From: Sphingobacteriia bacterium
Lineage (GTDB): Bacteria; Bacteroidota; Bacteroidia; Chitinophagales; Chitinophagaceae
Assembly (NCBI GenBank): GCA_015999745.1
Contig: JAECQP010000005.1
Location: forward strand, 1 to 64,000
Reading direction: 5' to 3'
Length of the DNA: 64,000 nucleotides
In this document: piece by piece, positions 25,014-40,649 of the stretch
Layout of the letters: each line of letters begins with the position of its first letter
How positions within the stretch are numbered: position 1 is the stretch's first letter
Translations under genes and position numbers: made by a program
The notes under the pieces: generated by a model
The model's database searches: none
Told to the model about the DNA's origin: nothing
Seen by the model: only the letters and a program-made list of their open reading frames with translations

Positions 25014-25064
25014 ATGAAACAAAAACTGCATATCCACCATCATCATTTCTTACCCAGGGGGTAG
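25014..25064 (+). CDS. hisL: his operon leader peptide (16 aa, five His codons)
   Basis: Reads MKQKLHIHHHHFLPRG then TAG. Codons 6 and 8-11 are His (CAT, CAC, CAT, CAT, CAT), interrupted only by one Ile. This is the hallmark of a histidine attenuation leader: ribosomes pause on the His run when charged tRNA-His is scarce. It starts eight bases after the -7 box, so its message is close to leaderless. The stop codon overlaps the candidate antiterminator arm (25060-25066) and a terminator follows 38 bases later, directly before hisG. It is too short for standard gene callers. Confidence 0.85.
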   Translation: MKQKLHIHHHHFLPRG

Positions 25065-25110
25065 GCAATTGGCGTGTATGTAAACCAAATACAAATCAGT
25101 GAAGCTTACC
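25051..25110 (+). promoter_or_regulatory. his attenuator: protector and antiterminator pairings
   Basis: Segment 25051-25055 (TACCC) can pair with 25059-25063 (GGGTA) as a small protector hairpin. Segment 25060-25066 (GGTAGGC) can instead pair with 25104-25110 (GCTTACC), seven base pairs with one G.U. That uses the left arm of the terminator. A ribosome stalled on the last His codon (25044-25046) should leave 25060-25066 exposed; one at the stop codon (25062-25064) covers it. Pairings were worked out by hand; no folding energies were computed. Confidence 0.65.
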
Positions 25111-25134
25111 AGTTTGGTAAGCTTTTTTATTTTT
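25102..25134 (+). terminator. his operon attenuator terminator
   Basis: AAGCTTACC (25102-25110), loop AGTTT, GGTAAGCTT (25116-25124): a perfect 9-bp stem, then TTTT and a further T-rich stretch. It lies between the leader peptide and hisG, where a terminator makes sense only as an attenuator. Confidence 0.85.
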
Positions 25135-25140
25135 AAGACT

Positions 25141-26019
25141 ATGAGCAATCCAATGAACACCAACAGTAAACTGAAATTAGCGATTCAAAAAAGTGGCAGG
25201 CTGCACGATGATTCTGTACGCCTTTTAAAAGAATGCGGTATTGATATCAGTAATGGCATCAATAAGCTGAAGGCCGATGCAACCAATTTCCCCATAGAAG
25301 TGTTTTTTCTGAGAGACGATGATATTCCGCAATATGTGGAAGACGGCGTGGCGGATATTGGATTTGTGGGAGAGAACGTGGTTTTTGAGAAAAAGAAAAA
25401 AGTAGTTGTTACGGAAAAACTGGGTTTCGGTAAATGCCGCCTGAGTATGGCCATTCAACGCAATGAACAGTACACGGGTATAGGTTTTTTACAGGGGAAG
25501 AAAATCGCCACCAGTTACCCGGTGATTGTATCGGACTACCTGAAGTCGAATGGTGTTGATGCCGAAATTCATGAAATCAGCGGAAGCGTGGAAATAGCGC
25601 CGGGTATAGGGCTGGCCGATGCCATCTGCGACCTGGTGAGCAGCGGATCAACCCTGTTCATGAACGGATTGAAAGAGGCAGAAATTATTCTGCAATCTCA
25701 GGCGGTGCTGATTAAGAATGATGGACTGGGTGCCGGTAAGCAGCAATTGCTGGATCGTTTACTGTTCCGCATACAGGCGGTGAAAAAAGCCAGGAACAAT
25801 AAATACATTCTGCTGAATGCCCCCAATCATAAGCTGAAAGAAATCATTGGTCTGCTGCCGGGTATGAAAAGCCCTACGGTATTGCCATTGGCCGAGGAAG
25901 GCTGGAGCAGTGTACACAGTGTGTTGAATGAAAATGAATTCTGGGAGATCATTGAGCAACTGAAAGCAGCTGGCGCTCAGGGTATTTTGGTCGTACCGAT
26001 CGAAAAAATGATTATTTAA
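25141..26019 (+). CDS. hisG: ATP phosphoribosyltransferase, long form
   Basis: 292 aa from the ATG at 25141 (MSNPMNTNSKLKLAIQKSGR); ATG 25153 is also possible. A GTG at 25099 keeps the frame open but would translate the attenuator stem and is rejected. The catalytic domains contain ESL-like VRLLKECGI, DIPQYVEDGVADIGFVGENV and the PRPP loop ISGSVEIAPGIGLADAICDLVSSGSTL. The C-terminal ~80 residues (SPTVLPLAEEGWSSVHSVL) are the ACT-like histidine-binding domain of the long form, so no HisZ is needed. It catalyses the first step of histidine synthesis and is feedback-inhibited by His. First gene after the leader. Confidence 0.95.
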   Translation: MSNPMNTNSKLKLAIQKSGRLHDDSVRLLKECGIDISNGINKLKADATNFPIEVFFLRDDDIPQYVEDGVADIGFVGENVVFEKKKKVVVTEKLGFGKCRLSMAIQRNEQYTGIGFLQGKKIATSYPVIVSDYLKSNGVDAEIHEISGSVEIAPGIGLADAICDLVSSGSTLFMNGLKEAEIILQSQAVLIKNDGLGAGKQQLLDRLLFRIQAVKKARNNKYILLNAPNHKLKEIIGLLPGMKSPTVLPLAEEGWSSVHSVLNENEFWEIIEQLKAAGAQGILVVPIEKMII

Positions 26020-26040
26020 CCTTTTAAACTGGTGATCATG

Positions 26041-27318
26041 ATGAAGATATTTGTAAGTCCGGATCGCAAGGACTGGCCCGTATTGCTGAAAAGACCCGTA
26101 TTTGATCATACCGATCTGATCGGCAAAGTCGGCAATGTGTTACAACAGGTAAAACAGAAGGGAGATGCTGCCGTTCAGCAGTTTACCGCCGAATTTGACG
26201 GGGCCCGGCTGAAAAACAGCAAAGTAACTCCGGAAGAAATTGCTACCGCTGTCTTGCCCAGGGAACTGAAAGATGCCATTCGTCTGGCGGCTGCCAATAT
26301 CCGCCGTTTTCACGAAAAACAGGTGCCTAAAGTGGAGAAGGCAGAAACCATCCCCGGGGTAAAATGCTGGAGAAAAGCAGTGCCCATTCAAAAAGTAGGG
26401 CTCTATATTCCCGGAGGCACAGCCCCCTTGTTCTCTACGATATTAATGCTGGGTATTCCTGCAGCTATTGCAGGTTGTGAGGAAGTGGTTCTTTGCTCTC
26501 CCCCGGATAAAACCGGGAAGCTGCACCCTGCCATACTCTTTGCTGCCGATCTGGTGGGAATCCATAGTATGTATAAAATTGGCGGTGCGCAGGCTATCGG
26601 CGCCATGGCGTATGGTACGGAAACCGTTCCTGCAGTGTATAAAATCTTTGGCCCCGGTAACCAGTATGTTACCTGCGCCAAACAAATGGTGCAACAGGAT
26701 GGTATTGCCATCGATATGCCCGCTGGGCCCAGTGAAGTATGTGTACTGGCAGATGATACAGCCCGTCCGGAATTTGTTGCGGCTGATTTACTGAGCCAGG
26801 CAGAACATGGTGTGGACAGCCAGGTATTACTGGTTAGTACCAGTAAGGAACTGATCAATGCAGTCAACGAAGCGCTGCGGGTGCAGTTGCCCCGGTTACC
26901 AAGAAAAGAGATTGCGGCAAAAGCATTGGAAAACAGCAAGGCCATCTATGTAAAAACAAAGAAGGAAGCCATTGAACTGGTGAATGAATATGCCGCCGAA
27001 CATCTCATCATTGCCTGTGCCAATGATGAACTGGTGGCCGGATCCATTGTAAATGCAGGCTCGGTATTCCTGGGCAATTTCTCCCCGGAAAGTGTGGGAG
27101 ATTATGCAAGCGGAACCAACCATACCCTGCCAACCAATGGCTATGCAAGGGCCTACAGCGGCGTGAGTCTCGATAGTTTCCTGAAGAAGATTACTTACCA
27201 GCGGCTTACCAAAATCGGATTACAGCATATCGGCAGGTCTGTGGAGATTATGGCGGAAGCGGAAGGGCTGCATGCACATAAAGAGGCGGTATCGATCCGC
27301 CTGAAAAATGAATTTTAA
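26041..27318 (+). CDS. hisD: Histidinol dehydrogenase
   Basis: About 426 aa from the ATG at 26041 (MKIFVSPDRKDW); in-frame ATG 26038 and GTG 26032 are alternatives. VGLYIPGGTAPLFSTILMLG, GGAQAIGAMAYGT, DMPAGPSEVCVLAD and LLSQAEHGVDSQ are canonical HisD motifs, including Zn and catalytic residues; AAEHLIIAC contains the catalytic Glu-His pair. The enzyme oxidises histidinol to histidine in two NAD-dependent steps, the last reaction of the pathway. It starts 21 bases after hisG. Confidence 0.95.
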   Translation: MKIFVSPDRKDWPVLLKRPVFDHTDLIGKVGNVLQQVKQKGDAAVQQFTAEFDGARLKNSKVTPEEIATAVLPRELKDAIRLAAANIRRFHEKQVPKVEKAETIPGVKCWRKAVPIQKVGLYIPGGTAPLFSTILMLGIPAAIAGCEEVVLCSPPDKTGKLHPAILFAADLVGIHSMYKIGGAQAIGAMAYGTETVPAVYKIFGPGNQYVTCAKQMVQQDGIAIDMPAGPSEVCVLADDTARPEFVAADLLSQAEHGVDSQVLLVSTSKELINAVNEALRVQLPRLPRKEIAAKALENSKAIYVKTKKEAIELVNEYAAEHLIIACANDELVAGSIVNAGSVFLGNFSPESVGDYASGTNHTLPTNGYARAYSGVSLDSFLKKITYQRLTKIGLQHIGRSVEIMAEAEGLHAHKEAVSIRLKNEF

Positions 27319-27375
27319 AAATCAGGTTCCCTGTAACGGGTTTGTACATCAATACTCAATTTATAATTACTAATA

Positions 27376-28437
27376 ATGTTATTCGATCTTAATCAACTCA
27401 TTCGCCCTAATATCGCCAAATTGACGGCCTATTCTTCCGCGAGAGACGAATTCAGCGGTGAAGCAAAAGTGTTTCTGGATGCCAATGAAAACAGCCTGGG
27501 TTCTCCCTTGTCCAAATGGTACAACCGTTATCCGGATCCGCACCAGCAGGCAGTGAAAGAAAAAATTGCTTTTGTGAAGCAACTTCCTGCAGAACATATT
27601 TTTCTGGGAAACGGAAGCGATGAGTGCATTGATTTATTGTACCGTTGTTTTTGTGAACCGGGGAAGGATAATGCAATCATTTGCCCGCCTACCTACGGCA
27701 TGTACGAAGTGAGCGCCAATATCAATGATGTTGCTGTAAAAAAAGTGCCACTGTTGAACAACTTTCAGCTGGACCTGGTTCACCTGGAAAATGCAGTGGA
27801 TGCCCATACCAAACTGATCTGGATCTGCTCTCCCAATAACCCGACCGGTAATTCACTGGACCGGATGGATATTGAAACGGTGCTGAATAATTTCAATGGT
27901 ATTGTGGTAATAGATGAGGCCTACATCAATTTTGCACAGCAGAAATCTTTTGTGCAGGAACTGGCCGATTACCCCAACCTGGTGATTCTGCAAACCTTCA
28001 GCAAGGCCTGGGGGCTGGCAGGACTGCGCCTGGGGATGGCATTTGCGTCTACGGCGATTATTGATGTAATGAATAAAGTGAAACCACCTTATAATATCAA
28101 CCAGGCCACGCAGGAACTGGCATTAAAGGCGCTGGACGAAATAGGGCAGGTAAATGATATGATCAAATTGCTGGTGGATATGCGTGAAGCGCTGGCGGAA
28201 GTATTCCGCTCAATGCCTACTGTAGAACAAGTGTATCCTTCCGATGCCAATTTTATACTGGTTAAAATCAGGGACGCCCGTAAGGTTTACGCGTTCCTGC
28301 TTACCAGGGGCATTGTATTGCGGGACAGGAGTAATGTAAAACTTTGTGAAGATTGTTTGAGGATCACCGTAGGAACTGAGCAGGATAACACATTACTGGT
28401 AGATGCCATGCATGAATGGTATCAGTTGAATCCCTAA
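27376..28437 (+). CDS. hisC: Histidinol-phosphate aminotransferase
   Basis: 353 aa fold-type I PLP enzyme. FLDANENSLGSP near the N-terminus, SPNNPTGNSL, and the PLP lysine in QTFSKAWGLAGLRLGMA match HisC. It transaminates imidazole-acetol phosphate with glutamate. It follows hisD by 57 bases, a gap without recognisable terminator, and is followed 24 bases later by a periplasmic dehydrogenase gene unrelated to histidine. Confidence 0.95.
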   Translation: MLFDLNQLIRPNIAKLTAYSSARDEFSGEAKVFLDANENSLGSPLSKWYNRYPDPHQQAVKEKIAFVKQLPAEHIFLGNGSDECIDLLYRCFCEPGKDNAIICPPTYGMYEVSANINDVAVKKVPLLNNFQLDLVHLENAVDAHTKLIWICSPNNPTGNSLDRMDIETVLNNFNGIVVIDEAYINFAQQKSFVQELADYPNLVILQTFSKAWGLAGLRLGMAFASTAIIDVMNKVKPPYNINQATQELALKALDEIGQVNDMIKLLVDMREALAEVFRSMPTVEQVYPSDANFILVKIRDARKVYAFLLTRGIVLRDRSNVKLCEDCLRITVGTEQDNTLLVDAMHEWYQLNP

Positions 28438-28461
28438 TTTTACGACACCTAAAACTGAAAT

Positions 28462-29703
28462 ATGCGATTTAAGCTGTTCCTCCTTTCAACCATTGTATTT
28501 GCAGGCAGTGCTGCTGCGCAACTACCGGGTGTATCCATCCGGGTTCCGTCTGGGTTTACTGTTGCCAATGTGGCAAAAGATTTTGGCCGTGTTCGTCATA
28601 TTGCCATAAACACCAATGGTGATGTGTATATGAAGCTGGAAAAGCTGAACCAGGGAAAAGGAATTTATCGGTTAAGAGACACCAACAAAGACGGGGTAAT
28701 GGACGATACCCTGGCTTTTGGTAATTATATCGGCACGGGTATAGCGCTTAAGCATGGCTATCTCTATGCCTCCTCCAACTCAGAAGTGTTCCGGTACAAG
28801 CTGGATGCACAGCAGGATATCCTGCACCCCGATCAGCCCGAAACCATCGTTACAGGGCTGGTAGATAAAAGACAACATGCTTCTAAATCCATTGCACTGG
28901 ATAATGCAGGAAATATTTATGTGAATATTGGCGCTCCCAGCAATGCCTGTCAGGAACAGGATCGCAAACAGGGCTCCATGGGCATGAATCCCTGCCCGAT
29001 CCTGGAAACTGCCGGTGGAATCTGGCAGTTCAGGGCTGATCGGCTAAACCAAACCTATAAAGAGGGGGTTCGTTATGCAACAGGCCTCCGGAATTGCGTG
29101 GGACTGGATTGGAACAACGAAGTAAATGAACTCTTTATTACCGTTCACGGAAGGGATATGCTGCACCAGTTTTACCCGGAAATATATAATCAGAAAAGAG
29201 GCGCGGAGCTTCCTTCAGAAACCATGTATATGGTGAAAAAAGGTGATGATTGCGGCTGGCCCTATGTGCATTGGGATCATTTTCAAAATAAGAAAATCCT
29301 GAACCCTGAATATGGGGGCGATGGAAAAAAGACCGGTGCAGAAAAAGCCCTGAGCCCGCTGGTGGGATTCCCCGGGCATATGGCGCCGAATGCTTTACTG
29401 TTTTATACAGGCAACCAATTTCCGGAAAAATACAGAAATGGTGCATTCATCGCTTTTCATGGCAGCTGGAACAGGGCTCCTGAAAACCAGGAAGGGTTTT
29501 ATGTGGTATTCATTCCTATGAAAGATGGTAAGCCAACCGGTAAATGGGAAGTATTTGCAGACGGGTTCTCCGGCGTGGAAAAAGTAACCAACCTGAGCGC
29601 TGTAAAACACCGTCCATGCGGATTGGCGCAGGGGCCGGACGGATCCATTTATGTGTCCGACGATAACAAAGGATATGTCTGGAAAATCAATTACAATCAA
29701 TAA
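28462..29703 (+). CDS. Periplasmic PQQ-type sugar dehydrogenase-like beta-propeller protein
   Basis: 413 aa with signal peptide MRFKLFLLSTIVFAGSAAAQ. The beta-propeller pattern (GRVRHIAINTNGDVYMKL, SKSIALDNAGNIYVNIG, GLAQGPDGSIYVSDDNKG) and YATGLRNCVGLDWN resemble soluble glucose/sorbosone dehydrogenases of the GDH-B class. These oxidise sugars with PQQ or serve as sugar-binding propellers. It sits inside the his operon between hisC and hisB with 24- and 9-base gaps. It is paired with a cytochrome c that could accept its electrons. No PQQ synthesis genes are in the window, so cofactor use is unproven. Confidence 0.8.
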   Translation: MRFKLFLLSTIVFAGSAAAQLPGVSIRVPSGFTVANVAKDFGRVRHIAINTNGDVYMKLEKLNQGKGIYRLRDTNKDGVMDDTLAFGNYIGTGIALKHGYLYASSNSEVFRYKLDAQQDILHPDQPETIVTGLVDKRQHASKSIALDNAGNIYVNIGAPSNACQEQDRKQGSMGMNPCPILETAGGIWQFRADRLNQTYKEGVRYATGLRNCVGLDWNNEVNELFITVHGRDMLHQFYPEIYNQKRGAELPSETMYMVKKGDDCGWPYVHWDHFQNKKILNPEYGGDGKKTGAEKALSPLVGFPGHMAPNALLFYTGNQFPEKYRNGAFIAFHGSWNRAPENQEGFYVVFIPMKDGKPTGKWEVFADGFSGVEKVTNLSAVKHRPCGLAQGPDGSIYVSDDNKGYVWKINYNQ

Positions 29704-29712
29704 ACGGCAGGG

Positions 29713-30132
29713 ATGAAAAAATGGATGGTGTTGTGCCTGATACTGGTATCGGCCATGGGTATGATGGTTTCATCTCAGGCAGGTAATACGCAGATGAAAA
29801 CTACGATGGCAAGGGGTAAACTGGTGTACGACCGTTATTGCCTTACCTGCCATCAGGCAGATGGGGGAGGCGTTCCCAGGATGAATCCGCCAATTACCAA
29901 TACAGAATATGTGCTGGGTAATAAACAGCGATTGATTGGTATTGTGTTAAACGGGTTGAATATTCCGCTCGAAATCAACGGAGAGGAATATGAAAATCCA
30001 ATGGCGTCACATGCTTTTCTCAAAGACGGGCAAATAGCAGATGTGTTAACTTATATTCGTAATTCCTTTGGAAACAAAGCGTCTGCAGTAACGGTTGCAG
30101 AAGTAAAATCCGCGAGGGCAAAAAATAAATGA
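29713..30132 (+). CDS. Periplasmic c-type cytochrome
   Basis: 139 aa. An N-terminal signal (MKKWMVLCLILVSAMGMMVSS) precedes one haem site CLTCHQADGGGVPRMNPP near residue 45, and ENPMASHAFLKDGQIADVLTY supplies the distal Met. This is a class I mono-haem cytochrome. Ten bases separate it from the dehydrogenase gene and its TGA overlaps the hisB start as ATGA, so it is translationally coupled to hisB. The natural partner is the upstream dehydrogenase; a link to histidine synthesis is not apparent. Confidence 0.88.
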   Translation: MKKWMVLCLILVSAMGMMVSSQAGNTQMKTTMARGKLVYDRYCLTCHQADGGGVPRMNPPITNTEYVLGNKQRLIGIVLNGLNIPLEINGEEYENPMASHAFLKDGQIADVLTYIRNSFGNKASAVTVAEVKSARAKNK

Positions 30133-31262
30133 TGAGAAGCGTTTTATTCATCGATAGAGACGGAGTGGTACTACAGGAACCGCCCACCGATTTTCAGGTA
30201 GACAGTATCGAAAAAACCAGTTTTGTACCGGGTGCTATTACCCAGTTGTCGCGGATTGCTGCAGATTTTGATTATTATAAAGTGATGGTGACCAACCAGG
30301 ATGGCCTGGGCACAGAAAGCTATCCGGAACACCAGTTTCATCCGTTTCAAAATTTAATGCTGCGAACCCTGGAAGGGGAGGGCTTTCTGTTTGATGAAAT
30401 GATTATCGACAGAACCTTCGCTGCCGACAACCGGCCTACCCGTAAACCGGGCACGGCACTGCTTGGTCATTTTATCAACGACCCGCAATTTGATCTTGCC
30501 CATTCCTATGTAATCGGCGACCGGTGGAGTGATATTCAGCTGGCAAAAAACCTGGGGTGCAAAGCCATTTATCTGAAATCGGGGCTGCACGAACTGAGCG
30601 ATGAACAGGTGTTTGAATATGCTGATACCATTGCGCTCGAAACCTCCGACTGGGCAGAAATCTATGCGTTCCTGAAACTGGGATTGCGTAAAGTGACGCA
30701 CGAAAGAAATACCAACGAAACAAAAATCCATATAGAACTGAATATAGAGGGTACCGGTAAATCCAATATCAATACAGGATTGGGTTTCTTTGATCATATG
30801 CTCGACCAGATCGCCCGTCATGGTAAAATGGATCTGACCGTGCATACAAAGGGGGATCTTCATGTAGACGAACACCATACCATTGAAGATACCGGTATTG
30901 CATTGGGCGAAGCATTTGCCATGGCTCTGACCGATAAACGGGGGATGGAGCGTTATGGATTTGCTTTACCCATGGACGAGGCCGAAGCTAAAGTGCTGAT
31001 TGATTTTGGCGGAAGAAACTGGATAGTATGGAATGCGGAATTTAAAAGAGAGCGGGTAGGAGAAATGCCAACAGAAATGTTTTTCCACTTCTTCAAATCG
31101 TTCAGCGATGGTGCAAAATGCAATCTCAATATTGAATGCAAGGGAGAAAATGAGCATCATAAAATTGAAGCCATCTTTAAAGCATTCGCCAAAGCCATTC
31201 GCATGGCGGTAAAAAGAGATCCCTTGTCGAATCAGTTGCCTTCCACCAAAGGAGTGCTTTAA
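30129..31262 (+). CDS. hisB: Bifunctional histidinol-phosphatase / imidazoleglycerol-phosphate dehydratase
   Basis: 377 aa fusion. N-terminal HAD phosphatase: FIDRDGVVLQEP holds the nucleophile Asp, MVTNQDGLG and YVIGDRWSDIQLAKNLG the other HAD motifs. C-terminal IGPD domain from about residue 185: GLGFFDHMLDQIARHG, DEHHTIEDTGIALGEA, EMFFHFFKSF and NEHHKIEAIFKAFAKA carry the metal-binding His and Glu. Start at 30129 or the adjacent ATG at 30132. It catalyses steps 6 and 8 of the pathway. The following 240-base gap holds the trp attenuator. Confidence 0.95.
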   Translation: MMRSVLFIDRDGVVLQEPPTDFQVDSIEKTSFVPGAITQLSRIAADFDYYKVMVTNQDGLGTESYPEHQFHPFQNLMLRTLEGEGFLFDEMIIDRTFAADNRPTRKPGTALLGHFINDPQFDLAHSYVIGDRWSDIQLAKNLGCKAIYLKSGLHELSDEQVFEYADTIALETSDWAEIYAFLKLGLRKVTHERNTNETKIHIELNIEGTGKSNINTGLGFFDHMLDQIARHGKMDLTVHTKGDLHVDEHHTIEDTGIALGEAFAMALTDKRGMERYGFALPMDEAEAKVLIDFGGRNWIVWNAEFKRERVGEMPTEMFFHFFKSFSDGAKCNLNIECKGENEHHKIEAIFKAFAKAIRMAVKRDPLSNQLPSTKGVL

Positions 31263-31323: not shown

Positions 31324-31354
31324 TTTGCAATTTCCATCAAAATGGTCATCTTTG
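31324..31354 (+). promoter_or_regulatory. trp promoter (TTTG-N19-CATCTTTG)
   Basis: TTTG at 31324-31327 and CATCTTTG at 31347-31354, 19 bases apart. The -7 element differs from TAnnTTTG only in its first base. As in the his promoter, the box ends exactly eight bases before the leader ATG. Confidence 0.6.
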
Positions 31355-31362
31355 TACCACTT

Positions 31363-31419
31363 ATGGCAATAATAAACAAACATTGGTGGTGGCATACAAA
31401 CTCTGAACGGGGATTGTAG
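31363..31419 (+). CDS. trpL: trp leader peptide (18 aa) with His-Trp-Trp-Trp-His
   Basis: Reads MAIINKHWWWHTNSERGL then TAG. Three consecutive TGG codons (31384-31392) are bracketed by CAT His codons (31381-31383 and 31393-31395). The Trp run is the classical sensor of a trp attenuator. The His codons are unusual and may let the leader also sense histidine, because hisHAF-IE lie downstream in the same gene series. It begins eight bases after the -7 box, so it is nearly leaderless. A GC-rich terminator follows 32 bases after the stop and trpE 83 bases after it. Confidence 0.85.
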   Translation: MAIINKHWWWHTNSERGL

Positions 31420-31458
31420 TGGCATTGCCAATACTGATTGAATATATTCAAGGCCCCG
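31408..31458 (+). promoter_or_regulatory. trp attenuator: antiterminator pairing
   Basis: CGGGG at 31408-31412 can pair with CCCCG at 31454-31458, and TTG at 31414-31416 with CAA at 31449-31451 across a small internal loop. This takes up the left arm of the terminator. A ribosome stalled on codons 7-11 should leave 31408-31416 free; one that reaches the stop (31417-31419) masks it. ATTGG/CCAAT (31382-31386 with 31428-31432) is a further alternative helix. Hand-derived, without energies. Confidence 0.6.
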
Positions 31459-31478
31459 GATAAAACCGGGGTTTTTTT
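31450..31478 (+). terminator. trp operon attenuator terminator
   Basis: CCCCGG (31454-31459), loop ATAAAA, CCGGGG (31466-31471), then T7. The stem extends by G.U and A-U pairs into the U tract. It lies between the trp leader peptide and trpE. Confidence 0.88.
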
Positions 31479-31502
31479 ATTGATTTAATTGAAGCAGAAA
31501 GC

Positions 31503-32918
31503 ATGAAAAAAATTAAGATTGAAACAGGCGGTAAAAAGATGCTGGCGGATATCCATACGCCGGTCGGCATCTACCTGCGTTTGAGAGACCGTTTCAGGGA
31601 TACCATCCTGTTGGAGAGTACAGATCACCATGTTTCGGAAAACAGCTATTCATTCATTTGTATCAATGCCATTGGCGGTATTGAAATTACATCAGCCGAC
31701 AGGGTGGAATTTAAACTTCCCGGACAGGATCCGGAGAGAATTAATATCAGTAAAGGCAGTAAAGTGCCCGACCTTGTATGGGAGTATATGCAGCGTTTTG
31801 AAGCAGCGGCGGTAGAAAACAGGGAGTTGAAATTTGCACAGGGCCTTTATGGATATACCAGCTTTGATGCAGTACAGTTTTTTGATAAAGTGCCGTTGAA
31901 AGATAAGGGCGCGCCGGTGATTCCGTTGATGCGTTACCGGCTTTACCAATATGTGATTGCCATCAATCATTATAAAGACGTACTCTATCTCTGTGAAAAC
32001 AAAATCGCCGGAATAGAATCTGACCTGGATGCAGTGGAATCGCTGATCAGAAGCAAAGATGTGCCGGTGTTCCCGTTCAGGTTAAAAGGAACCGAACGTT
32101 CCAATATGAGCAATGAGGATTATGTGAACATGGTGAAGCAGGGAATTAAAAGTTGTATGCGGGGCGATGTGTTCCAGATTGTGCTGAGCCGTCGTTTTGA
32201 ACACAGTTTCACAGGCGACGAATTCAACGTATACCGTGCATTGCGCAGCATCAATCCTTCTCCTTATTTATTTTTCTTCGATTACGGCGATTATAAATTA
32301 TTCGGCTCGTCTCCCGAAGCGCAGATCATTCTGCAGCATGGAAAAGCCGTGGTGCATCCGATTGCAGGAACCTTTAAAAGAACCGGGGACGAAAAAACGG
32401 ACGAAGCGGCGGCGGCACGGTTACTGGAAGATGCCAAGGAAAATGCAGAGCATGTAATGCTGGTGGATCTTGCCAGGAACGACCTGAGCCGTGTTTGTTC
32501 CGATGTGGAAGTGAGCCAGTACCGCCAGGTACAGTACTACAGTCATGTGATTCACCTGGTAAGCGAAGTAACCGGCAAAGTAAAAGAAGGGCAGAATCCT
32601 TTTGAACTGCTGGCCAAAACCTTCCCTGCCGGTACCCTCAGCGGCGCTCCAAAGATCAGGGCCATTGACCTGATTGACGCACTGGAGCCAACCAGCAGAG
32701 GATACTATGGCGGCGCCATCGGATTTGTTGATTTCGAAGGCAACTGTAATCATGCCATCATGATCCGCACGTTCCTGTCCCGTCAGAATACCCTGATCTG
32801 CCAGGCGGGTGCAGGTATAGTTGCCGCCAGCGTTCCGGAAAATGAATTACAGGAAGTAAATAATAAATTGAACGCATTAAAGACCGCAGCAAAAATGGCG
32901 GAAACCATCAACTCATAA
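31503..32918 (+). CDS. trpE: Anthranilate synthase component I
   Basis: 471 aa. ILLESTDH near residue 40 contains the LLES motif used for tryptophan feedback binding. The chorismate-binding core has HPIAGTFKRTGDEKTDE, VDLARNDLSRVC, FPAGTLSGAPKIRAIDLI and YGGAIGFVDFEGNCNHAIMI. It uses chorismate and ammonia from TrpG to make anthranilate. First gene after the trp attenuator; trpG follows by 12 bases. The motifs favour TrpE over PabB. Confidence 0.95.
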   Translation: MKKIKIETGGKKMLADIHTPVGIYLRLRDRFRDTILLESTDHHVSENSYSFICINAIGGIEITSADRVEFKLPGQDPERINISKGSKVPDLVWEYMQRFEAAAVENRELKFAQGLYGYTSFDAVQFFDKVPLKDKGAPVIPLMRYRLYQYVIAINHYKDVLYLCENKIAGIESDLDAVESLIRSKDVPVFPFRLKGTERSNMSNEDYVNMVKQGIKSCMRGDVFQIVLSRRFEHSFTGDEFNVYRALRSINPSPYLFFFDYGDYKLFGSSPEAQIILQHGKAVVHPIAGTFKRTGDEKTDEAAAARLLEDAKENAEHVMLVDLARNDLSRVCSDVEVSQYRQVQYYSHVIHLVSEVTGKVKEGQNPFELLAKTFPAGTLSGAPKIRAIDLIDALEPTSRGYYGGAIGFVDFEGNCNHAIMIRTFLSRQNTLICQAGAGIVAASVPENELQEVNNKLNALKTAAKMAETINS

Positions 32919-32930
32919 GCGCAGCAACCA

Positions 32931-33503
32931 ATGAAAATACTTGTATTTGATAACTACGATTCTTTCACATATAACCTGGTACACCTGGTGACCAAAATCA
33001 CCAATGATAAAGTGGATGTTTACCGCAATGATGAACTGCCATTGGAACAAGTTGCGGGATACGATAAAATCCTTTTGTCTCCCGGCCCGGGGATTCCTTC
33101 GGAAGCGGGCCTTTTGCCGGACCTGATTAAAGCCTACGCACCCCTTAAAAGCATATTAGGCGTTTGCCTCGGCCATCAGGCCATCGGAGAATCCTTTGGC
33201 GCAAAACTGGTCAACCTGTCTACTGTATATCATGGAGTAGCAACGCCGGTCTTTACAAACGAATCTGCTAAAAGTCCTTTGTTCAAAGGATTGCCCGAAG
33301 AATTTGTGGCGGGCAGATACCATAGCTGGGTAGTTAGCGATGAAGATTTTCCGGCAGAATTGGAGGTTACCGCCCGTGATGCCAATGGGTATATTATGGG
33401 ACTGCAGCATAAAAAATACGATGTGCAGGGTGTACAGTTTCATCCGGAAAGTGTGCTGACACCGGATGGCGAAACCATTCTCCGGAACTGGCTGGGTCGC
33501 TGA
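32931..33503 (+). CDS. trpG: Anthranilate synthase component II (glutamine amidotransferase)
   Basis: 190 aa class I amidotransferase. FDNYDSFTYNLVHL opens the protein, the nucleophile Cys is in GVCLGHQAIGE near residue 79, and the His-Glu pair is in VQFHPESVLT near the C-terminus. It supplies ammonia to TrpE. It could also serve PabB, as TrpG does in some bacteria. It lies 12 bases after trpE and 67 bases before trpD. Confidence 0.95.
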   Translation: MKILVFDNYDSFTYNLVHLVTKITNDKVDVYRNDELPLEQVAGYDKILLSPGPGIPSEAGLLPDLIKAYAPLKSILGVCLGHQAIGESFGAKLVNLSTVYHGVATPVFTNESAKSPLFKGLPEEFVAGRYHSWVVSDEDFPAELEVTARDANGYIMGLQHKKYDVQGVQFHPESVLTPDGETILRNWLGR

Positions 33504-33570
33504 TCAAAACAGCTGTCCGTTCTGCAGAGTTCCTGCGGGGAGCAATTTAAAACGCATTAATACCGATACA

Positions 33571-34563
33571 ATGAAAAAAATACTACAATACTTATTCAGT
33601 CATAAAACGCTTTCCAGGGAAAAAGCCAGGGAGGTCATGCTCAATATATCAGCAGGCCAGTATAATGATGCGGAGATTGCCGCATTCATTACCGTATACC
33701 TGATGCGAAGTATCACCATAGAGGAACTGCAGGGGTTCTGCGACGGACTGCTGGAGCTCTCCGTTAAAGTGAAACTGGAAGGCGGTAAACTAATGGATAT
33801 CGTAGGAACGGGTGGAGATGGCAAGAATTCCTTCAATATATCTACCCTGGCCTGCTTTATTGTGGCAGGTGCCGGACAAAAAGTAGCCAAACATGGTAAC
33901 TACGGCGCTTCTACCATCAGCGGCGCATCCAATGTGATGGAGCAATTAGGCTACAGGTTCAAGAACAACAATACAGCATTGCAACAGGAATTGGATGCTG
34001 CCAATATCTGTTTTCTTCATGCGCCATTGTTTCACCCTGCATTAAAAACGGCAGGCCCGGTACGGAAAAGCCTGGGGATCAGAACCTTCTTCAATATGAT
34101 GGGGCCAATGATCAATCCATCCAACCCCGATTTTCAACTGGTAGGAGTGTATAACCTGGAAATGGCAAGGATCTATAACTACCTGCTGCAGCCAACCGGC
34201 AGGGAATTTACCATCATCCACAGCCTCGACGGATACGACGAAATATCCCTCACCAGCGATACCAAGGTCATCACCAATGACGGAGAAAAAGTGATGACGC
34301 CCGAACAACTGGGCAAACGCCCGGTACGCCCGGAAGATATTCACGGAGGCAATACAGTAGAAGAAGCTGCAAAGATTTTCCAGAAGATCATTAAAGGAGA
34401 GGGTACCTGGTCTCAGAATGCGGTAGTACTGGCCAACGCGGCGATGGCGCTGCATTGCACCGGAGCTTATTCCAGTTACGACGATGCCTATAAGGCCGCT
34501 GTGGAAAGCCTGGAAAGCGGGAAAGCGTATGAGGGGCTTAAAAAACTGATTGCCTTGCAATAA
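33571..34563 (+). CDS. trpD: Anthranilate phosphoribosyltransferase
   Basis: 330 aa from the ATG at 33571 (MKKILQYLFSHKTLS); the frame is open back to 33466 but that part overlaps trpG and has no similarity. DIVGTGGDGKNSFNISTLAC is the PRPP-binding loop, KHGNYGASTISGASNVMEQL the anthranilate-binding part, and RTFFNMMGPMINPSNP a further family motif. It joins anthranilate to PRPP. Confidence 0.95.
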   Translation: MKKILQYLFSHKTLSREKAREVMLNISAGQYNDAEIAAFITVYLMRSITIEELQGFCDGLLELSVKVKLEGGKLMDIVGTGGDGKNSFNISTLACFIVAGAGQKVAKHGNYGASTISGASNVMEQLGYRFKNNNTALQQELDAANICFLHAPLFHPALKTAGPVRKSLGIRTFFNMMGPMINPSNPDFQLVGVYNLEMARIYNYLLQPTGREFTIIHSLDGYDEISLTSDTKVITNDGEKVMTPEQLGKRPVRPEDIHGGNTVEEAAKIFQKIIKGEGTWSQNAVVLANAAMALHCTGAYSSYDDAYKAAVESLESGKAYEGLKKLIALQ

Positions 34564-34574
34564 CTGAACCAACC

Positions 34575-35372
34575 ATGAACATTTTAGATACCATCATTAC
34601 CCAAAAAAGAATTGAAGTGAAGGAACGCAAGGCGATCCGATCTGTAGAAGATTTGCAGAAGGAACCGCTGTTTACCAAAGTAACCTGTTCGCTGAAGCAG
34701 TCGTTGCTGGATCCTTCCAAAACAGGCATCATTGCAGAGTATAAACGTAAATCTCCCAGCAAGGGGTTGATCAACGGAACCGCAACGGTGGAAGAAGTTA
34801 CTGCGGCGTATACATCTAACGGAGCTTCCGGCATATCAGTGTTAACAGATGAACAATTTTTTGGGGGTTCCATCAATGATCTGGTTGCAGCCAATATCAA
34901 TGCTATACCGATTCTCAGAAAGGATTTTATGATAGACGAATACCAATTGGTGGAAGCCAGGGCCTTTGGTGCAGACGTCATCCTGCTGATTGCGGCCTGC
35001 CTGAACCCTGAAGAAGTTCAACGGCTGGCTGTTAAGGCCAAATTGCTGGGGCTGGAAGTGTTGCTGGAGATACACAAGGAGGAGGAACTGGGTCATATCT
35101 GTGAGGAAGTAGACCTGGTTGGGATCAATAACCGGAACCTGAAGGATTTTGAAGTGGATATCAATAAGTCTATGCAGTTACTGAATATGCTCCCGGCCAA
35201 TAAGCCGGCAGTAGCAGAAAGTGGCATTAATAATGTGGATACCATTGTAACTTTACAACAGGCCGGATTTAAAGGATTCCTGATTGGGGAACATTTTATG
35301 AAAGCTTCAAACCCTTCGATTGCTTTTGCTGATTTTGTAACGCAATTAAAAGCAAAACAACATGCGGGCTAA
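34575..35372 (+). CDS. trpC: Indole-3-glycerol-phosphate synthase
   Basis: 265 aa (beta-alpha)8 barrel. IIAEYKRKSPSKGLI carries the catalytic Lys, ISVLTDEQFFGGSINDL and PILRKDFMIDEYQLVEA the next barrel motifs, and DLVGINNRNLKDFEVD and AVAESGINNV the phosphate side. It closes the indole ring from CdRP. It overlaps trpF by 11 bases, so the two enzymes that are fused in enterobacteria are separate but coupled here. Confidence 0.95.
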   Translation: MNILDTIITQKRIEVKERKAIRSVEDLQKEPLFTKVTCSLKQSLLDPSKTGIIAEYKRKSPSKGLINGTATVEEVTAAYTSNGASGISVLTDEQFFGGSINDLVAANINAIPILRKDFMIDEYQLVEARAFGADVILLIAACLNPEEVQRLAVKAKLLGLEVLLEIHKEEELGHICEEVDLVGINNRNLKDFEVDINKSMQLLNMLPANKPAVAESGINNVDTIVTLQQAGFKGFLIGEHFMKASNPSIAFADFVTQLKAKQHAG

Positions 35373-36003
35373 AGTATGTGGCTTAAACAGTGTAGATCAA
35401 TTCATGCAGCTGGATGAATTGGGTGTAGAATTCGGTGGATTTATTTTCTATCCCCAGAGTCCCCGTTATGCATTGAAACATATGCAGGCAGCCGAGCTGA
35501 AGAAGGCGAAGGGGCAGCATATAAACAAAGTGGGGGTATTTGTAAATGAACCGGCAGAAAATGTGCTGCGGATGGTAGACGATTTTGGCCTTTACCTGGT
35601 TCAGTTACACGGAGATGAAACACCCCGTTATTGTGAAAAGATAGCCGACTATGTTACCGTGATCAAAGCCTTCCGCTTAAGGAACGATGATAATGTGTTG
35701 TGGAAGGTTAAAGATTATTACGATGTGGCAGACATGTTTTTATTTGATACGGAGGGGGCTGCTTTTGGCGGAACAGGGAAGCAGTTCAACTGGAGCATAT
35801 TAAAAGAACTGACCATCAATAAGCCGTTTTACCTGAGCGGGGGCATTGGCCCGGACGATTTGGGTATGCTGGAAGCATTTGCCAAAGATCCGGTAGCAAA
35901 AGACCTTTTTGCCATAGACGTGAACAGTAAATTTGAAACGGCGCCCGGTATCAAAAATATGGCGTTACTGAAAAAATTTATACAGGAGGTTAAAAGAATC
36001 TGA
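35362..36003 (+). CDS. trpF: Phosphoribosylanthranilate isomerase
   Basis: 213 aa barrel. KVCGLNSVDQ holds the catalytic Cys, GFIFYPQSPRY, VQLHGDETP and FDTEGAAFGGTGKQFNW follow, with LSGGIGPDDL and AIDVNSKFETAPGIKN for the phosphate site. It performs the Amadori isomerisation parallel to HisA, which is encoded 3.1 kb downstream in the same gene series. The stop TGA shares its A with the start of the next ORF (TGATG). Confidence 0.93.
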   Translation: MRAKVCGLNSVDQFMQLDELGVEFGGFIFYPQSPRYALKHMQAAELKKAKGQHINKVGVFVNEPAENVLRMVDDFGLYLVQLHGDETPRYCEKIADYVTVIKAFRLRNDDNVLWKVKDYYDVADMFLFDTEGAAFGGTGKQFNWSILKELTINKPFYLSGGIGPDDLGMLEAFAKDPVAKDLFAIDVNSKFETAPGIKNMALLKKFIQEVKRI

Positions 36004-36524
36004 TGAAACAACTAAAGAAATGGATGGCGTTGGCAGGATGGATGCTTCTGATGAGTTCTCACTCCCATGCGCAACAGCTCTCGAATATATACCTGACCGA
36101 AAAAGGGAAAGCCAGCTACCTGATTTCCGTGAACACGCTGGCGGTGGTAATCAGCGATTCCGGTAAACTATCCGAAATCAGAACCGCTGCATCCGGAACC
36201 ATTATCTACAATACTACCCTGCAGGTAGAGCAGATCGGAGATGTGAAAATCGGGTTTAATTACCAGGGCCAAATCAACAGGATAGGCAATACTCCCATTC
36301 TATATGATTTTGGCGGAAGGGTAGACCGCATCGGCAACCTGGGCTTTCGGTACAATTATAACAATCTGCTGGTGTCTGTGGGGGACCAGGGTATCCGGTA
36401 CAATCCGGATCATACCATTGACCAGTTCGACCAGTACAGGATCGTGTATAATTATAACAAACAGGTGCAGAAGATCGATGACAGCAAGGGGCTGATCATA
36501 TTGCAACTAAATTTTCATAAGTAG
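36003..36524 (+). CDS. Unknown secreted protein inside the trp operon
   Basis: 173 aa. An N-terminal stretch (KKWMALAGWMLLMSSHSHAQQ) is a good signal peptide. The mature part is rich in Gly, Asn, Tyr and Ile with a loosely repeated unit of about 18-20 residues (INRIGNTPILYDFGG, VDRIGNLGFRYNYN, then VGDQGIRYNPD, YRIVYNYNK), suggesting a beta-repeat fold. I recognise no named family. It is translationally coupled to trpF by TGATG and lies 12 bases before trpB, so it is expressed with tryptophan enzymes although it is predicted to leave the cytoplasm. Confidence 0.75.
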   Translation: MKQLKKWMALAGWMLLMSSHSHAQQLSNIYLTEKGKASYLISVNTLAVVISDSGKLSEIRTAASGTIIYNTTLQVEQIGDVKIGFNYQGQINRIGNTPILYDFGGRVDRIGNLGFRYNYNNLLVSVGDQGIRYNPDHTIDQFDQYRIVYNYNKQVQKIDDSKGLIILQLNFHK

Positions 36525-36536
36525 AAAAAGAATACG

Positions 36537-37721
36537 ATGAATTATCAACAACCCACCGAGCAAGGTTATTACGGAAAATTTGGCGGTGCTTATATCCCCG
36601 AAATGTTGCATGCCAATGTAGAAGAACTGAAGGCGCAGTATTTGCAGATCATGAACGAGCCTTCTTTTGTAGAAGCATTCAGGTTGCTGCTGAAGGATTA
36701 TGTGGGCCGCCCTACGCCATTGTTTTATGCAGAGCGTTTGAGCCGGGAGTTCAATACCCATATTTACCTGAAGCGCGAAGACCTCTGTCATACAGGTGCA
36801 CACAAGATCAATAATACGATCGGGCAGATCCTGCTGGCCCGTAAACTGGGCAAGACCCGTATCATTGCAGAAACGGGGGCAGGGCAACACGGCGTCGCTA
36901 CCGCTACCGTTTGTGCGCTGAAGGGCATGGAATGCATTGTTTATATGGGGGAGAAAGACATTGAACGCCAGGCGCCCAATGTGGCCAGGATGAAAATGCT
37001 GGGAGCCACCGTAGTGCCTGCAACCAGCGGAAGTAAAACGCTGAAGGATGCTACCAACGAAGCCATCCGCGACTGGATCAATCATCCGCACAATACCCAT
37101 TACATCATCGGCAGCGTGGTAGGCCCGCATCCTTATCCGGATATGGTAGCCCGTTTTCAGAGCGTGATCAGCGAGGAAGTAAAGCTTCAGTTGAAAGAAA
37201 AAACCGGTAATGAACTGCCCACACATGTAGTAGCCTGTGTGGGTGGAGGAAGCAATGCAGCAGGGGCATTCTACCATTACCTGAACGAAGCTTCTGTTAA
37301 ACTGGTGGCAGTGGAAGCAGCGGGCCACGGCGTAAACAGCGGTATGAGCGCAGCCACAACACAACTGGGTAAGCCGGGCATTCTTCACGGAAGTAAAAGC
37401 CTGGTGATGCAGACTGCCGACGGCCAGGTGGTGGAACCACACAGTATTTCAGCAGGATTGGATTATCCGGGTGTAGGGCCATTGCACGCTAATTTATTTG
37501 ATACCGGAAGGGGAACCTTCTTAAGTGCTACAGATGAAGAAGCGCTGGAAGCAGCTTTCCACCTCAGCAGAACGGAGGGTATTATTCCCGCCCTGGAATC
37601 GGCTCATGCATTGTCTGTTTTAGGCAGGCTGAATCTTACCCCTTCCGATCGGGTGGTGGTATGTTTAAGCGGAAGGGGAGACAAGGATCTTGATACCTAT
37701 ATGAAAGCGATGAATAAATAA
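36537..37721 (+). CDS. trpB: Tryptophan synthase beta chain
   Basis: 394 aa PLP enzyme. [17 protein letters not shown] at the N-terminus, the PLP Lys in [35 protein letters not shown], the phosphate loop [15 protein letters not shown] and [12 protein letters not shown] at the end are all canonical TrpB1. It condenses indole with serine. The last base directly precedes the trpA start. Confidence 0.97.
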
Positions 37722-38513
37722 ATGACTATGAGTAGAATCACCAACCTATTTGAACAAAAAAAACAGCGTGTGCTGAATGTATATTTTACTGCGGGATACC
37801 CTGCATTGAATGATACATTAACAGTGATGCGTTCACTGGCTTCTGCGGGTGCTGATCTGATTGAAATCGGAATGCCCTACAGTGATCCGCTGGCAGACGG
37901 TCCCGTGATACAGGATAGCAGCAGCAAGGCATTGGCCAATGGAATGACCATTCAAACCCTTTTTGAACAGTTAAAAGGGTTTCGCAAGGATCCTTTACTC
38001 GCCAAAACCGGTGTGGTATTAATGGGTTATATGAATCCGGTGCTGCAGTATGGTTTTGAAAAATTTTGTGCAGCTGCCGCCGAAGCAGGTGTGGATGGAT
38101 TAATTCTCCCGGATTTGCCGGAATATGAATTTGAAAACGAATTCGGCGTCATTATTAAAAAGTACGGGCTCGATTTTGTGTTCCTGGTAACCCCGGAAAC
38201 CACCAATGCCCGTATACATCAGCTGGACAGGCTCAGTTCAGGATTCCTCTATGCGGTCAGCTCTTCTGCAACCACAGGTGGAAATACGAATTTTGCTGCA
38301 GTGGAGGTTTATTTGCAAAAGCTGCAGCAGATGAAGCTGAATAACCCGGTACTGGTCGGTTTTGGTATCAGGGACCGCGCCAGTTTTGACTCGGCCTGTA
38401 CATATGCCAATGGCGCTATTATCGGCAGCGCCTACATTAAAGCGCTTGCCAATGTAACGGATATTGATGCCGCTACAAAAGCATTTGTGAAACCGATTAT
38501 ACAAGCTAAATAA
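37722..38513 (+). CDS. trpA: Tryptophan synthase alpha chain
   Basis: 263 aa barrel. FTAGYPALNDTL, LIEIGMPYSDPLADGPVIQ (containing the catalytic Glu and Asp), VLMGYMNPVLQYG and GFGIRDRASF match TrpA. Start at 37722; the ATG at 37728 also possible. It abuts trpB with no gap. It releases indole from indole-3-glycerol phosphate. Only 7 bases separate its stop from the GTG of hisH, so the trp block runs directly into the second his block. Confidence 0.96.
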   Translation: MTMSRITNLFEQKKQRVLNVYFTAGYPALNDTLTVMRSLASAGADLIEIGMPYSDPLADGPVIQDSSSKALANGMTIQTLFEQLKGFRKDPLLAKTGVVLMGYMNPVLQYGFEKFCAAAAEAGVDGLILPDLPEYEFENEFGVIIKKYGLDFVFLVTPETTNARIHQLDRLSSGFLYAVSSSATTGGNTNFAAVEVYLQKLQQMKLNNPVLVGFGIRDRASFDSACTYANGAIIGSAYIKALANVTDIDAATKAFVKPIIQAK

Positions 38514-38520
38514 CGTAAAC

Positions 38521-39114
38521 GTGAAACTGGTCATTATAAAATACAATGCGGGCAATATTCAATCGGTATTGTATGCGCTGGAGCGGATTGGTGCTACTGC
38601 CATTGTTACAGACGATATCGCCGAAATAAAGGTTGCAGACAAAGTGATATTTCCGGGTGTGGGAGAAGCCAGCACGGCCATGCGCTATTTAAAAGAACGA
38701 AAACTGGATCAGGTAATCGCGGGGCTGCAGCAACCGGTGCTGGGAATCTGCCTGGGTATGCAGCTCATGTGCAGGTATAGCGAAGAGAACAACACCGATT
38801 GCCTGGGAATCTTCAACGAAGATGTGAAAGCCTTTACTGCATCTGCAACGGCAGCTATTAAAATTCCGCAGATAGGCTGGAACAATATCTATCATCTTAA
38901 AACGCCCTTGTTCAACGGAGTAAAGGAAAACAGTTATTGCTATTTTGTACATGGTTTTTATGCGGCATTGGGCGAACATACTATTGCTGCCACGGAGTAT
39001 GGAATTGAATACAGCTCGGCCCTGCACAGGGATAATTTTTACGGAACACAGTTCCATCCTGAAAAAAGCGCCGGTGTTGGAGAACAGATATTGAAAAACT
39101 TTATTGAACTGTAA
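38521..39114 (+). CDS. hisH: Imidazole glycerol phosphate synthase, glutaminase subunit
   Basis: 197 aa from a GTG start at 38521. The Cys nucleophile is in LGICLGMQLMCRYSEE near residue 80, and FYGTQFHPEKSAGVGE supplies His and Glu. MKLVIIKYNAGNIQSVLYAL is the HisH N-terminus. It delivers ammonia to HisF. Placed immediately after trpA and before hisA. Confidence 0.95.
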   Translation: MKLVIIKYNAGNIQSVLYALERIGATAIVTDDIAEIKVADKVIFPGVGEASTAMRYLKERKLDQVIAGLQQPVLGICLGMQLMCRYSEENNTDCLGIFNEDVKAFTASATAAIKIPQIGWNNIYHLKTPLFNGVKENSYCYFVHGFYAALGEHTIAATEYGIEYSSALHRDNFYGTQFHPEKSAGVGEQILKNFIEL

Positions 39115-39124
39115 ATACAAGTGC

Positions 39125-39850: not shown

Positions 39851-39861
39851 AACAGATAATT

Positions 39862-40620: not shown

Positions 40621-40649
40621 CCCAAATTTGTACTACGAATACAGCGACT

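What the first reader, a model, noticed from the sequence alone, without database searches (positions are those of the whole stretch)
31324..31502. trp leader peptide HWWWH: a possible dual tryptophan/histidine attenuator
The region between hisB and trpE holds a promoter, an 18-codon ORF (31363-31419), a GC-rich terminator (31450-31478) and a compatible antiterminator helix (31408-31416 with 31449-31458). The three TGG codons are bracketed on both sides by CAT (His). Genes downstream include trpEGDCFBA and also hisHAF-IE. Stalling on either His codon should leave the antiterminator arm exposed just as stalling on Trp does, so one leader could sense both amino acids. Seen: codons and hairpins. 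Known: trp attenuation by leader-peptide stalling. Inferred: dual sensing.
Basis: partly seen in the sequence, partly recalled or inferred. Interest (0 to 1): 0.9.

Follow-up and report, generated by a model that had tools for sequence, protein, structure and literature searches.

The report
Tryptophan attenuator that likely senses histidine
A short control peptide in front of the tryptophan genes of a Bacteroidota bacterium has a histidine codon right after its three tryptophan codons, and in related bacteria that histidine is nearly always there when histidine genes follow in the same operon, so one RNA switch probably responds to shortage of either amino acid.

Summary
Window 31363-31419 encodes MAIINKHWWWHTNSERGL, followed by a terminator (31450-31475) and an alternative 5-bp antiterminator (31408-31412 with 31454-31458). 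Twelve tightly packed genes follow: trpEGDCF, one unknown ORF, trpBA, hisHAF-IE. It is a ribosome-mediated trp attenuator, present in all 74 loci of the genus with readable upstream DNA.

Dual sensing is supported by comparison, only for the His codon AFTER the Trp run. Of 227 distinct trpE loci with a leader, His follows the run in 99 of 100 with his genes downstream and 19 of 74 without (48/49 vs 19/74 without the window's genus; 6/7 vs 13/59 outside its family). A tree-based likelihood test favours dependence (p 2e-6); strictly independent pairs are weaker (on average 5.3 for, 0.3 against, 4.5 undecided of 10; median p 0.06). The His BEFORE the run varies (14 of 74).

Invariance of CAT in the genus is not evidence by itself: the codon lies in the 1:2 hairpin, its third base facing the stop codon. 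A His-rich leader precedes hisG, so two attenuators lie in series. In E. coli trpL, stalling just after the Trp codons also antiterminates. No expression was measured.

The parts
31324..31354 (+). promoter-like elements: TTTG 31324-31327, 19 nt, CATCTTTG 31347-31354
   Evidence: sequence; TTTG within 40 nt before the leader ATG in 137 of 138 related leaders, 4-8 nt before it in 117 (no shuffled control); consensus name recalled
31363..31419 (+). leader peptide ORF, MAIINKHWWWHTNSERGL*
31381..31383 (+). His codon before the Trp run; not conserved (14 of 74 loci of the genus)
31384..31392 (+). three Trp control codons
   Evidence: WWW in 73 of 74 loci of the genus, WWG in L076
31393..31395 (+). 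His codon after the Trp run, proposed second control codon; CAT in 74 of 74 loci of the genus
31384..31430 (+). predicted 1:2 hairpin (Trp/His codons with the segment round the stop codon)
   Evidence: -19.3 kcal/mol, z -3.3; inner stem canonical in 1146 of 1248 cells of 114 leaders (0.918; row-shuffled maximum 0.907); outer stem at the Trp codons 803 of 908, no better than row-shuffled
31408..31412 (+). antiterminator arm (segment 2), pairs with 31454-31458
31450..31482 (+). intrinsic terminator (stem 31450-31475, then T run)
   Evidence: six inner pairs canonical in 684 of 684 cells of 114 leaders, with changes on both sides
31503..41246 (+). trpE-G-D-C-F, unknown ORF, trpB-A, hisH-A-F-IE: genes downstream of the attenuator, gaps of at most 29 nt
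25014..25064 (+). second leader peptide in front of hisG, MKQKLHIHHHHFLPRG*
   Evidence: His-run leader found before hisG in 51 of 56 other loci where hisG is visible
25101..25125 (+). terminator stem of the hisG leader
25141..31262 (+). hisG (ATG 25141 likely; the listed ORF starts at GTG 25099, at the terminator), hisD, hisC, two cytochrome-type ORFs, hisB
   Evidence: the start codon of hisG is inference

Best explanation
31324-31502 is a ribosome-mediated transcription attenuator. A ribosome that translates the leader quickly reaches the stop codon, covers segment 2 (CGGGG), and the 3:4 hairpin terminates transcription before trpE. A ribosome held at any of the three Trp codons, or at the His codon just after them, leaves segment 2 free to pair with segment 3 and RNA polymerase reads on. 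Because hisHAF-IE lie in the same transcript behind trp, the His codon lets histidine shortage open the same gate, including for transcripts already released by the His leader in front of hisG. Shown: ORF, predicted and partly covarying hairpins, gene order, association of the downstream His codon with downstream his genes. Inferred: co-transcription, stalling, antitermination and the response to either amino acid.
For: Leader and hairpins conserved. +1 His: 99 of 100 linked vs 19 of 74 unlinked distinct loci; 48/49 vs 19/74 without the genus clade (Fisher 2e-17, not corrected for descent). Outside the window's family, class-survey loci: 6/7 vs 13/59 (p 0.0017). Given a CAN codon, His:Gln is 48:0 linked and 19:17 unlinked outside the genus clade. 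Likelihood test of dependence on the TrpE tree, 174 tips: LRT 26.0, p 2.3e-6. Linked leaders with different downstream sequence (L101, L104, L108, L115, L122, L124, L153) keep His, 4 with CAT and 3 with CAC. Ferruginibacter-type loci and L205 have tlpA next behind trpA, no his block there, and Gln. Position: with usual footprints (recalled) a ribosome whose A site holds 31393 ends near 31405, short of the arm at 31408. E. coli precedent: stalling on the Arg codon after the Trp codons prevents the I:II hairpin and leads to antitermination (PMC1183508, figure-legend passages). An illustrative race model with assumed control codons gives read-through at a His codon rate of 1 per s of 0.87 for HWWWH (the window), 0.59 for WWWH and 0.02 for WWWQ.
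Against: No expression data. 19 of 74 unlinked leaders also have His, among them five Chitinophagaceae loci without the his block (L221, L224, L226, L234, L240). Strict independent pairs: 10, on average 5.3 the same way, 0.3 opposite, 4.5 undecided; median p 0.0625, range 0.03-0.38. The likelihood fit rests on loss of His in unlinked lineages; gain of His in linked lineages is estimated near zero. One linked locus lacks His (L088, WRWWSA; only hisH seen behind trpA, hisF 41 kb away). CAT is constrained as RNA: its third base pairs with the stop codon's third base in 113 of 114 leaders. When the whole predicted antiterminator duplex must be free, a stall at the His codon leaves it free in only 54 of 99 linked His leaders (window: free); in the rest its 5' edge would be covered. 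One His codon against three Trp codons predicts a weaker His response.
Confidence: 0.68

Rival explanations
1. A trp attenuator that senses Trp only; His after WWW is kept because the nucleotides TGGCAT belong to the 1:2 hairpin, and the operon correlation reflects shared descent.
For: CAT, never CAC, in 74 loci of the genus, while each of 61 conserved two-fold codon columns of trpE has at least 3 C-ending codons among 71 genomes. Third base of CAT pairs with the stop codon in 113 of 114 leaders. CAN codons are also common in unlinked leaders, 36 of 74. Independent pairs are not significant on their own.
Against: Other linked lineages keep His with different surrounding sequence and with CAC. 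Gln (also CAN) is 0 of 49 in linked and 17 of 74 in unlinked loci outside the genus clade. L205 lacks the his block and has CAA opposite an A of its stop codon, which breaks the pair. Likelihood test p 2e-6.
Confidence: 0.25
2. Chance short ORF between hisB and trpE; the terminator belongs to hisB.
For: The 57-nt antiterminator stretch alone folds no better than shuffles.
Against: Leader in 74 of 74 readable loci of the genus and in 232 of 250 trpE loci examined; it stays upstream of trpE where hisB is not seen next to it (L073-L077, L079, L097, L099).
Confidence: 0.02
3. The His codon mainly tunes Trp control (slow decoding next to the Trp run) rather than reporting histidine.
For: His is also the commonest residue in unlinked leaders, 19 of 74.
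Against: Does not predict the dependence on downstream his genes.
Confidence: 0.08

Closest known systems
Escherichia coli trp attenuator (trpL; Rfam RF00513 Trp_leader)
   Same: Short leader ORF with a Trp run, 1:2, 2:3 and 3:4 hairpins, U-rich terminator before trpE; in E. coli the codon after the Trp run is inside the control region (PMC1183508, passages)
   Different: Sequence match far below Rfam's cut-off (18.8 bits, cut-off 41); three Trp codons; leader ATG a few bases from the promoter-like element; the codon after the run is His and the operon continues into hisHAF-IE
E. coli thr attenuator (threonine and isoleucine codons in one leader)
   Same: One leader whose codons for two amino acids set the specificity of attenuation (title of Lynn et al. 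1987, seen only in the reference list of PMC7041290)
   Different: Amino acids of two different pathways, Trp and His, joined because the genes are interleaved in one gene array
his attenuator (hisL; Rfam RF00514 His_leader)
   Same: A His-run leader with terminator precedes hisG in this window, and a His-run leader does so in 51 of 56 other loci
   Different: The element studied here is internal, Trp-based, and lies before only the distal half of his; RF00514 score 18.2 bits against 49

Membership tests
Ribosome-mediated (leader-peptide) transcription attenuators | short ORF with a run of control codons for the operon's product | tested here: met
Ribosome-mediated (leader-peptide) transcription attenuators | intrinsic terminator between leader and first gene | tested here: met
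   684 of 684 cells canonical, row-shuffled maximum 0.968
[quoted passage not shown]
   5-bp arm in the last codons of the window; pairs kept in 391 of 486 cells (81 rows, row-shuffled maximum 0.786 against 0.805) and 164 of 165 (33 rows, no better than row-shuffled); folding energy of that stretch alone not better than shuffles
Ribosome-mediated (leader-peptide) transcription attenuators | read-through rises when the cognate tRNA is uncharged | not testable with these tools
   needs expression measurements
Rfam RF00513 Trp_leader | score at or above the gathering cut-off | tested here: not met
   18.8 bits against 41; no hit at gathering level
Two-amino-acid (multivalent) attenuators | codons for two amino acids in the control region, with genes of both pathways downstream | tested here: met
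   WWWH and trpE-A plus hisHAF-IE; +1 His in 99 of 100 linked loci; that the His codon is inside the control region rests on recalled footprints and the E. coli precedent
Two-amino-acid (multivalent) attenuators | derepression by starvation for either amino acid | not testable with these tools
   needs a reporter

The most novel reading that the evidence does not exclude
The hisGDC..B-trp-hisHAF-IE gene array of Chitinophagaceae carries two attenuators in series: a His-only gate in front, and an internal gate that answers to Trp OR His, so that a His-starvation signal admitted at the front is not blocked in the middle when Trp is plentiful. The second input is a single His codon at the edge of the control region; it is held wherever his genes follow trp and tends to be lost in lineages (Ferruginibacter type, L205) whose distal his genes are no longer in the operon.
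Probability: 0.58. Interest if true: 0.72.

Novelty: new variant of a known kind. Interest (0 to 1): 0.62.

Why it matters
It would be a case where the codon content of a leader peptide follows operon architecture: where two pathways share one transcript, the sensor holds a codon for the second amino acid. It offers natural variants for testing how regulation evolves after operons join or split, and shows Trp-leader attenuators widely in Bacteroidia. My ten library searches (open-licence PMC papers; I saw listings, and passages of three papers) listed no paper on a Trp/His leader in these bacteria; that is not proof that none exists.

Tried and rejected
Rfam: no hit in the leader at gathering level. 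At loose E-values 19 weak, overlapping hits, best GcvB (25.6 bits, cut-off 42, E 0.0005), then Trp_leader (18.8 bits, cut-off 41, E 0.13); none reaches its cut-off, and I did not pursue GcvB. The sigma-70 promoter scan gave chance-level hits (2 found, 2.3 expected). Counting CAT invariance as evidence for His sensing was dropped after the hairpin analysis. A first, rough search for arm-2/arm-3 complements gave spurious matches to the T run and is not used. His before the run as a second control codon: Fisher p 0.007 outside the genus clade and LRT p 0.017, but independent pairs do not support it, so not claimed. Among the 29 of 139 leaders listed as lacking TG after the stop, several have it one codon later or are of another type, so that count is not used; one search is.

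Rows dropped or set by hand: 250 trpE loci were examined (L006-L255); 18 had no recognised leader (6 with 26-148 nt upstream of trpE: L008, L019, L021, L051, L106, L201; 12 others), 5 were duplicates, 227 remain. Linkage was unknown for 53 of the 227 (38 with His, 15 without) and these are left out of the tests. L187 and L076 were corrected by eye (wrong ORF picked; WWG). L086, L087 and L089 were set to unlinked, and L229 to unknown. The window's own locus L006 (from its gene order) and 15 of the genus with short flanks (from hisF coordinates) were set to linked. L117 (Ser) was counted unlinked although hisF lies about 17 kb downstream on the same strand; L098 (His) was counted unlinked with hisF about 49 kb away. 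Five further loci of the genus (L096, L194, L195, L222, L244) sat in the first 'outside the genus' counts (52/53); one search takes them out (48/49). For the alignment I gave 114 of the 121 leaders listed, leaving out seven of the shorter HTT type (L199, L200, L210, L221, L224, L234, L248).

Full report
What is there. The window belongs to a Bacteroidota genome. Its genus in the held genomes (g1) contains G088, whose contig C13 has the same length (1,755,992) and the same trpE as a contig titled Sediminibacterium soli (L238), so the genus is most likely Sediminibacterium, family Chitinophagaceae. Genes on the + strand: hisG, hisD, hisC, two cytochrome-type ORFs, hisB, then trpE, trpG, trpD, trpC, trpF, an ORF without an NCBIfam hit, trpB, trpA, hisH, hisA, hisF, hisIE. 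From trpE to hisIE no gap exceeds 29 nt; trpA and hisH are 7 nt apart. Between hisB and trpE lies the leader of the finding: 31363-31419, MAIINKHWWWHTNSERGL*.

RNA. The leader 31358-31482 folds better than 199 of 200 dinucleotide shuffles (z -3.8). The stretch 31384-31448 forms a 1:2 hairpin (-19.3 kcal/mol, z -3.3). 31450-31475 is a terminator followed by T. If the ribosome hides everything up to about 31405, CGGGG 31408-31412 pairs with CCCCG 31454-31458; that stretch alone is not more stable than shuffles (z -1.1), and once segment 4 is present the terminator wins. In an alignment of 114 relatives six terminator pairs are canonical in 684 of 684 cells with changes on both sides (row-shuffled maximum 0.968). 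The inner 1:2 stem is canonical in 1146 of 1248 cells (0.918; row-shuffled maximum 0.907), its outer part at the Trp codons in 803 of 908 (no better than row-shuffled). The antiterminator is canonical in 391 of 486 cells in one register (81 rows; 0.805 against a row-shuffled maximum of 0.786) and in 164 of 165 in the other (33 rows; no better than row-shuffled). So covariation supports the terminator clearly, the inner 1:2 stem and one antiterminator register modestly.

Conservation in the genus. trpE was found in 98 of 150 relatives searched. Of 78 loci of the genus read, 74 (window included) have the leader; the other 4 have 26-117 nt upstream of trpE. WWW in 73, WWG in one (L076). The codon after the run is CAT in 74 of 74. 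The codon before it is His in 14, Ile in 22, Tyr in 10, Phe in 9, others in 19. So 'HWWWH' is a local form and 'WWWH' is the constant.

Why the constancy of CAT is not enough. Among 61 conserved two-fold codon columns of trpE in 71 of these genomes, each has at least 3 C-ending codons, and the six His columns have 6-17 CAC. A CAT with no CAC is therefore unusual and points to a constraint on the nucleotides. The fold offers one: CAT sits in the 1:2 hairpin; its third base is paired in 135 of 139 predicted structures, and in the alignment it faces the third base of the leader's stop codon, pairing in 113 of 114 rows. Its first base has a partner in 112 of 114 rows and its second in 95 of 108.

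Survey across Bacteroidia. I then took trpE loci from the class (123 of 395 genomes match; 80 regions read) and 80 named contigs, largely Chitinophagaceae by title or similarity (505 relatives found, best 80 kept). Of 250 loci in all, 232 have a recognisable Trp leader; after removing 5 duplicates 227 remain: 100 with his genes behind trp, 74 without, 53 undecidable. His follows the Trp run in 99 of 100 linked and 19 of 74 unlinked loci. Leaving out the genus clade: 48 of 49 against 19 of 74. Among class-survey loci outside the window's family: 6 of 7 against 13 of 59. Among CAN codons outside the genus clade, His:Gln is 48:0 in linked and 19:17 in unlinked loci, so the contrast is not just a preference for TGGCA.

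Shared descent. On a TrpE tree (FastTree) linkage changes at least 11 times and +1 His 14 times. Ten strictly independent pairs give on average 5.3 in the expected direction, 0.3 against and 4.5 undecided, median p 0.0625, range 0.03-0.38; with WWW-type leaders only, 9 pairs give 5.2, 0 and 3.8. A likelihood model in which gain and loss of His depend on linkage beats independence by LRT 26.0 (p 2.3e-6). In that fit loss of His is near zero in linked and high in unlinked lineages, while gain in linked lineages is also near zero, so the signal is retention where linked and loss where not, rather than repeated gain. Such tests can be inflated when one large clade dominates; I therefore rate the association strong but not conclusive. 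For the upstream His the same test gives p 0.017 and the pairs give nothing.

Informative cases. Ferruginibacter-type loci have trpA followed next by tlpA, the gene that in the window follows hisIE, and carry WWWQ; L186 and L217, of undecided linkage, have S and N. L205 keeps the window-type leader but reads WWWQTNAERGL with trpA-tlpA; its CAA mismatches the stop codon. L104, in another family, has HWWWHTEANQLAG with hisGDCB-trp-hisHAF-IE, while three relatives in its family (L116, L121, L136) have WWL, two of them unlinked and one undecided. L087 has hisGDCB before trp, hisF on another contig, and reads WWWN. Against: L221, L224, L226, L234 and L240 lack the his block and keep His, as do 14 other unlinked loci; L088 has hisH behind trpA and reads WRWWSA.

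Mechanism. With usual footprints (recalled) a ribosome with 31393 in its A site reaches about 31405, just short of the antiterminator arm, so His is about the last codon at which a stall leaves the arm free. Applied to the whole predicted duplex in all leaders, this strict criterion is met by 54 of 99 linked His leaders, the window among them, and not by 45, where the duplex edge lies closer; in most window-type leaders the G run itself starts 12-13 nt after the His codon. In E. coli the corresponding codon, Arg after the two Trp codons, acts as a control codon (PMC1183508, figure-legend passages). A simple race model with rates quoted in that paper, geometry from this leader, and the codons from -1 to +1 assumed to be control codons predicts read-through of about 0.03 when replete, 0.96 at a Trp codon rate of 1 per s, and at a His codon rate of 1 per s 0.87 for HWWWH, 0.59 for one His on either side and 0.02 for none. 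This is an illustration, not a fit.

Two gates in series. In front of hisG lies a second leader, MKQKLHIHHHHFLPRG* (25014-25064), with its own terminator 25101-25125. A His-run leader is found there in 51 of 56 other loci where hisG is visible; 2 of the 5 misses had only 31 bases upstream. Transcripts admitted by that gate must pass the trp gate to reach hisHAF-IE. A His codon in the trp leader would solve this, which is why his genes downstream, not upstream, should matter. This logic is inference.

Known or new. Ribosome-mediated attenuation and leaders that read two amino acids are known (thr operon: title of Lynn et al. 1987 seen in a reference list). A Trp/His leader tied to a his-trp gene array was not listed in ten searches of open-licence papers. 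I class it as a new variant of a known kind.

Noticed in passing
window 25014-25125: A His-run leader peptide with terminator precedes hisG, making two attenuators in one gene array.
   Followed up: partly
window 31347-31365 and relatives: The leader ATG lies only 4-8 nt after the TTTG promoter-like element in 117 of 138 related leaders, so the leader mRNA is probably nearly leaderless, with little room for a Shine-Dalgarno site.
   Followed up: partly
window 28462-30132: Two cytochrome-type ORFs sit between hisC and hisB and recur there in many loci of the genus; no obvious link to His synthesis.
   Followed up: no
window 36003-36524: A 173-aa ORF between trpF and trpB without an NCBIfam match, recognised by sequence in only some loci of the genus (L043, L046, L054, L062).
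   Followed up: no
L146, L150, L157, L160, L166, L169, L171, L174: Leaders with interrupted Trp runs: WLW, WCW, WQW and WRW.
   Followed up: no
L076:5302-5396: End of the Trp run changed: TGG TGG GGG CAT, one control codon lost.
   Followed up: no
L245:971-1071: Window-type leader with Tyr (TAC) after the Trp run; the changed third base C faces G of the stop TAG, so the hairpin pair is kept; operon context unknown.
   Followed up: partly
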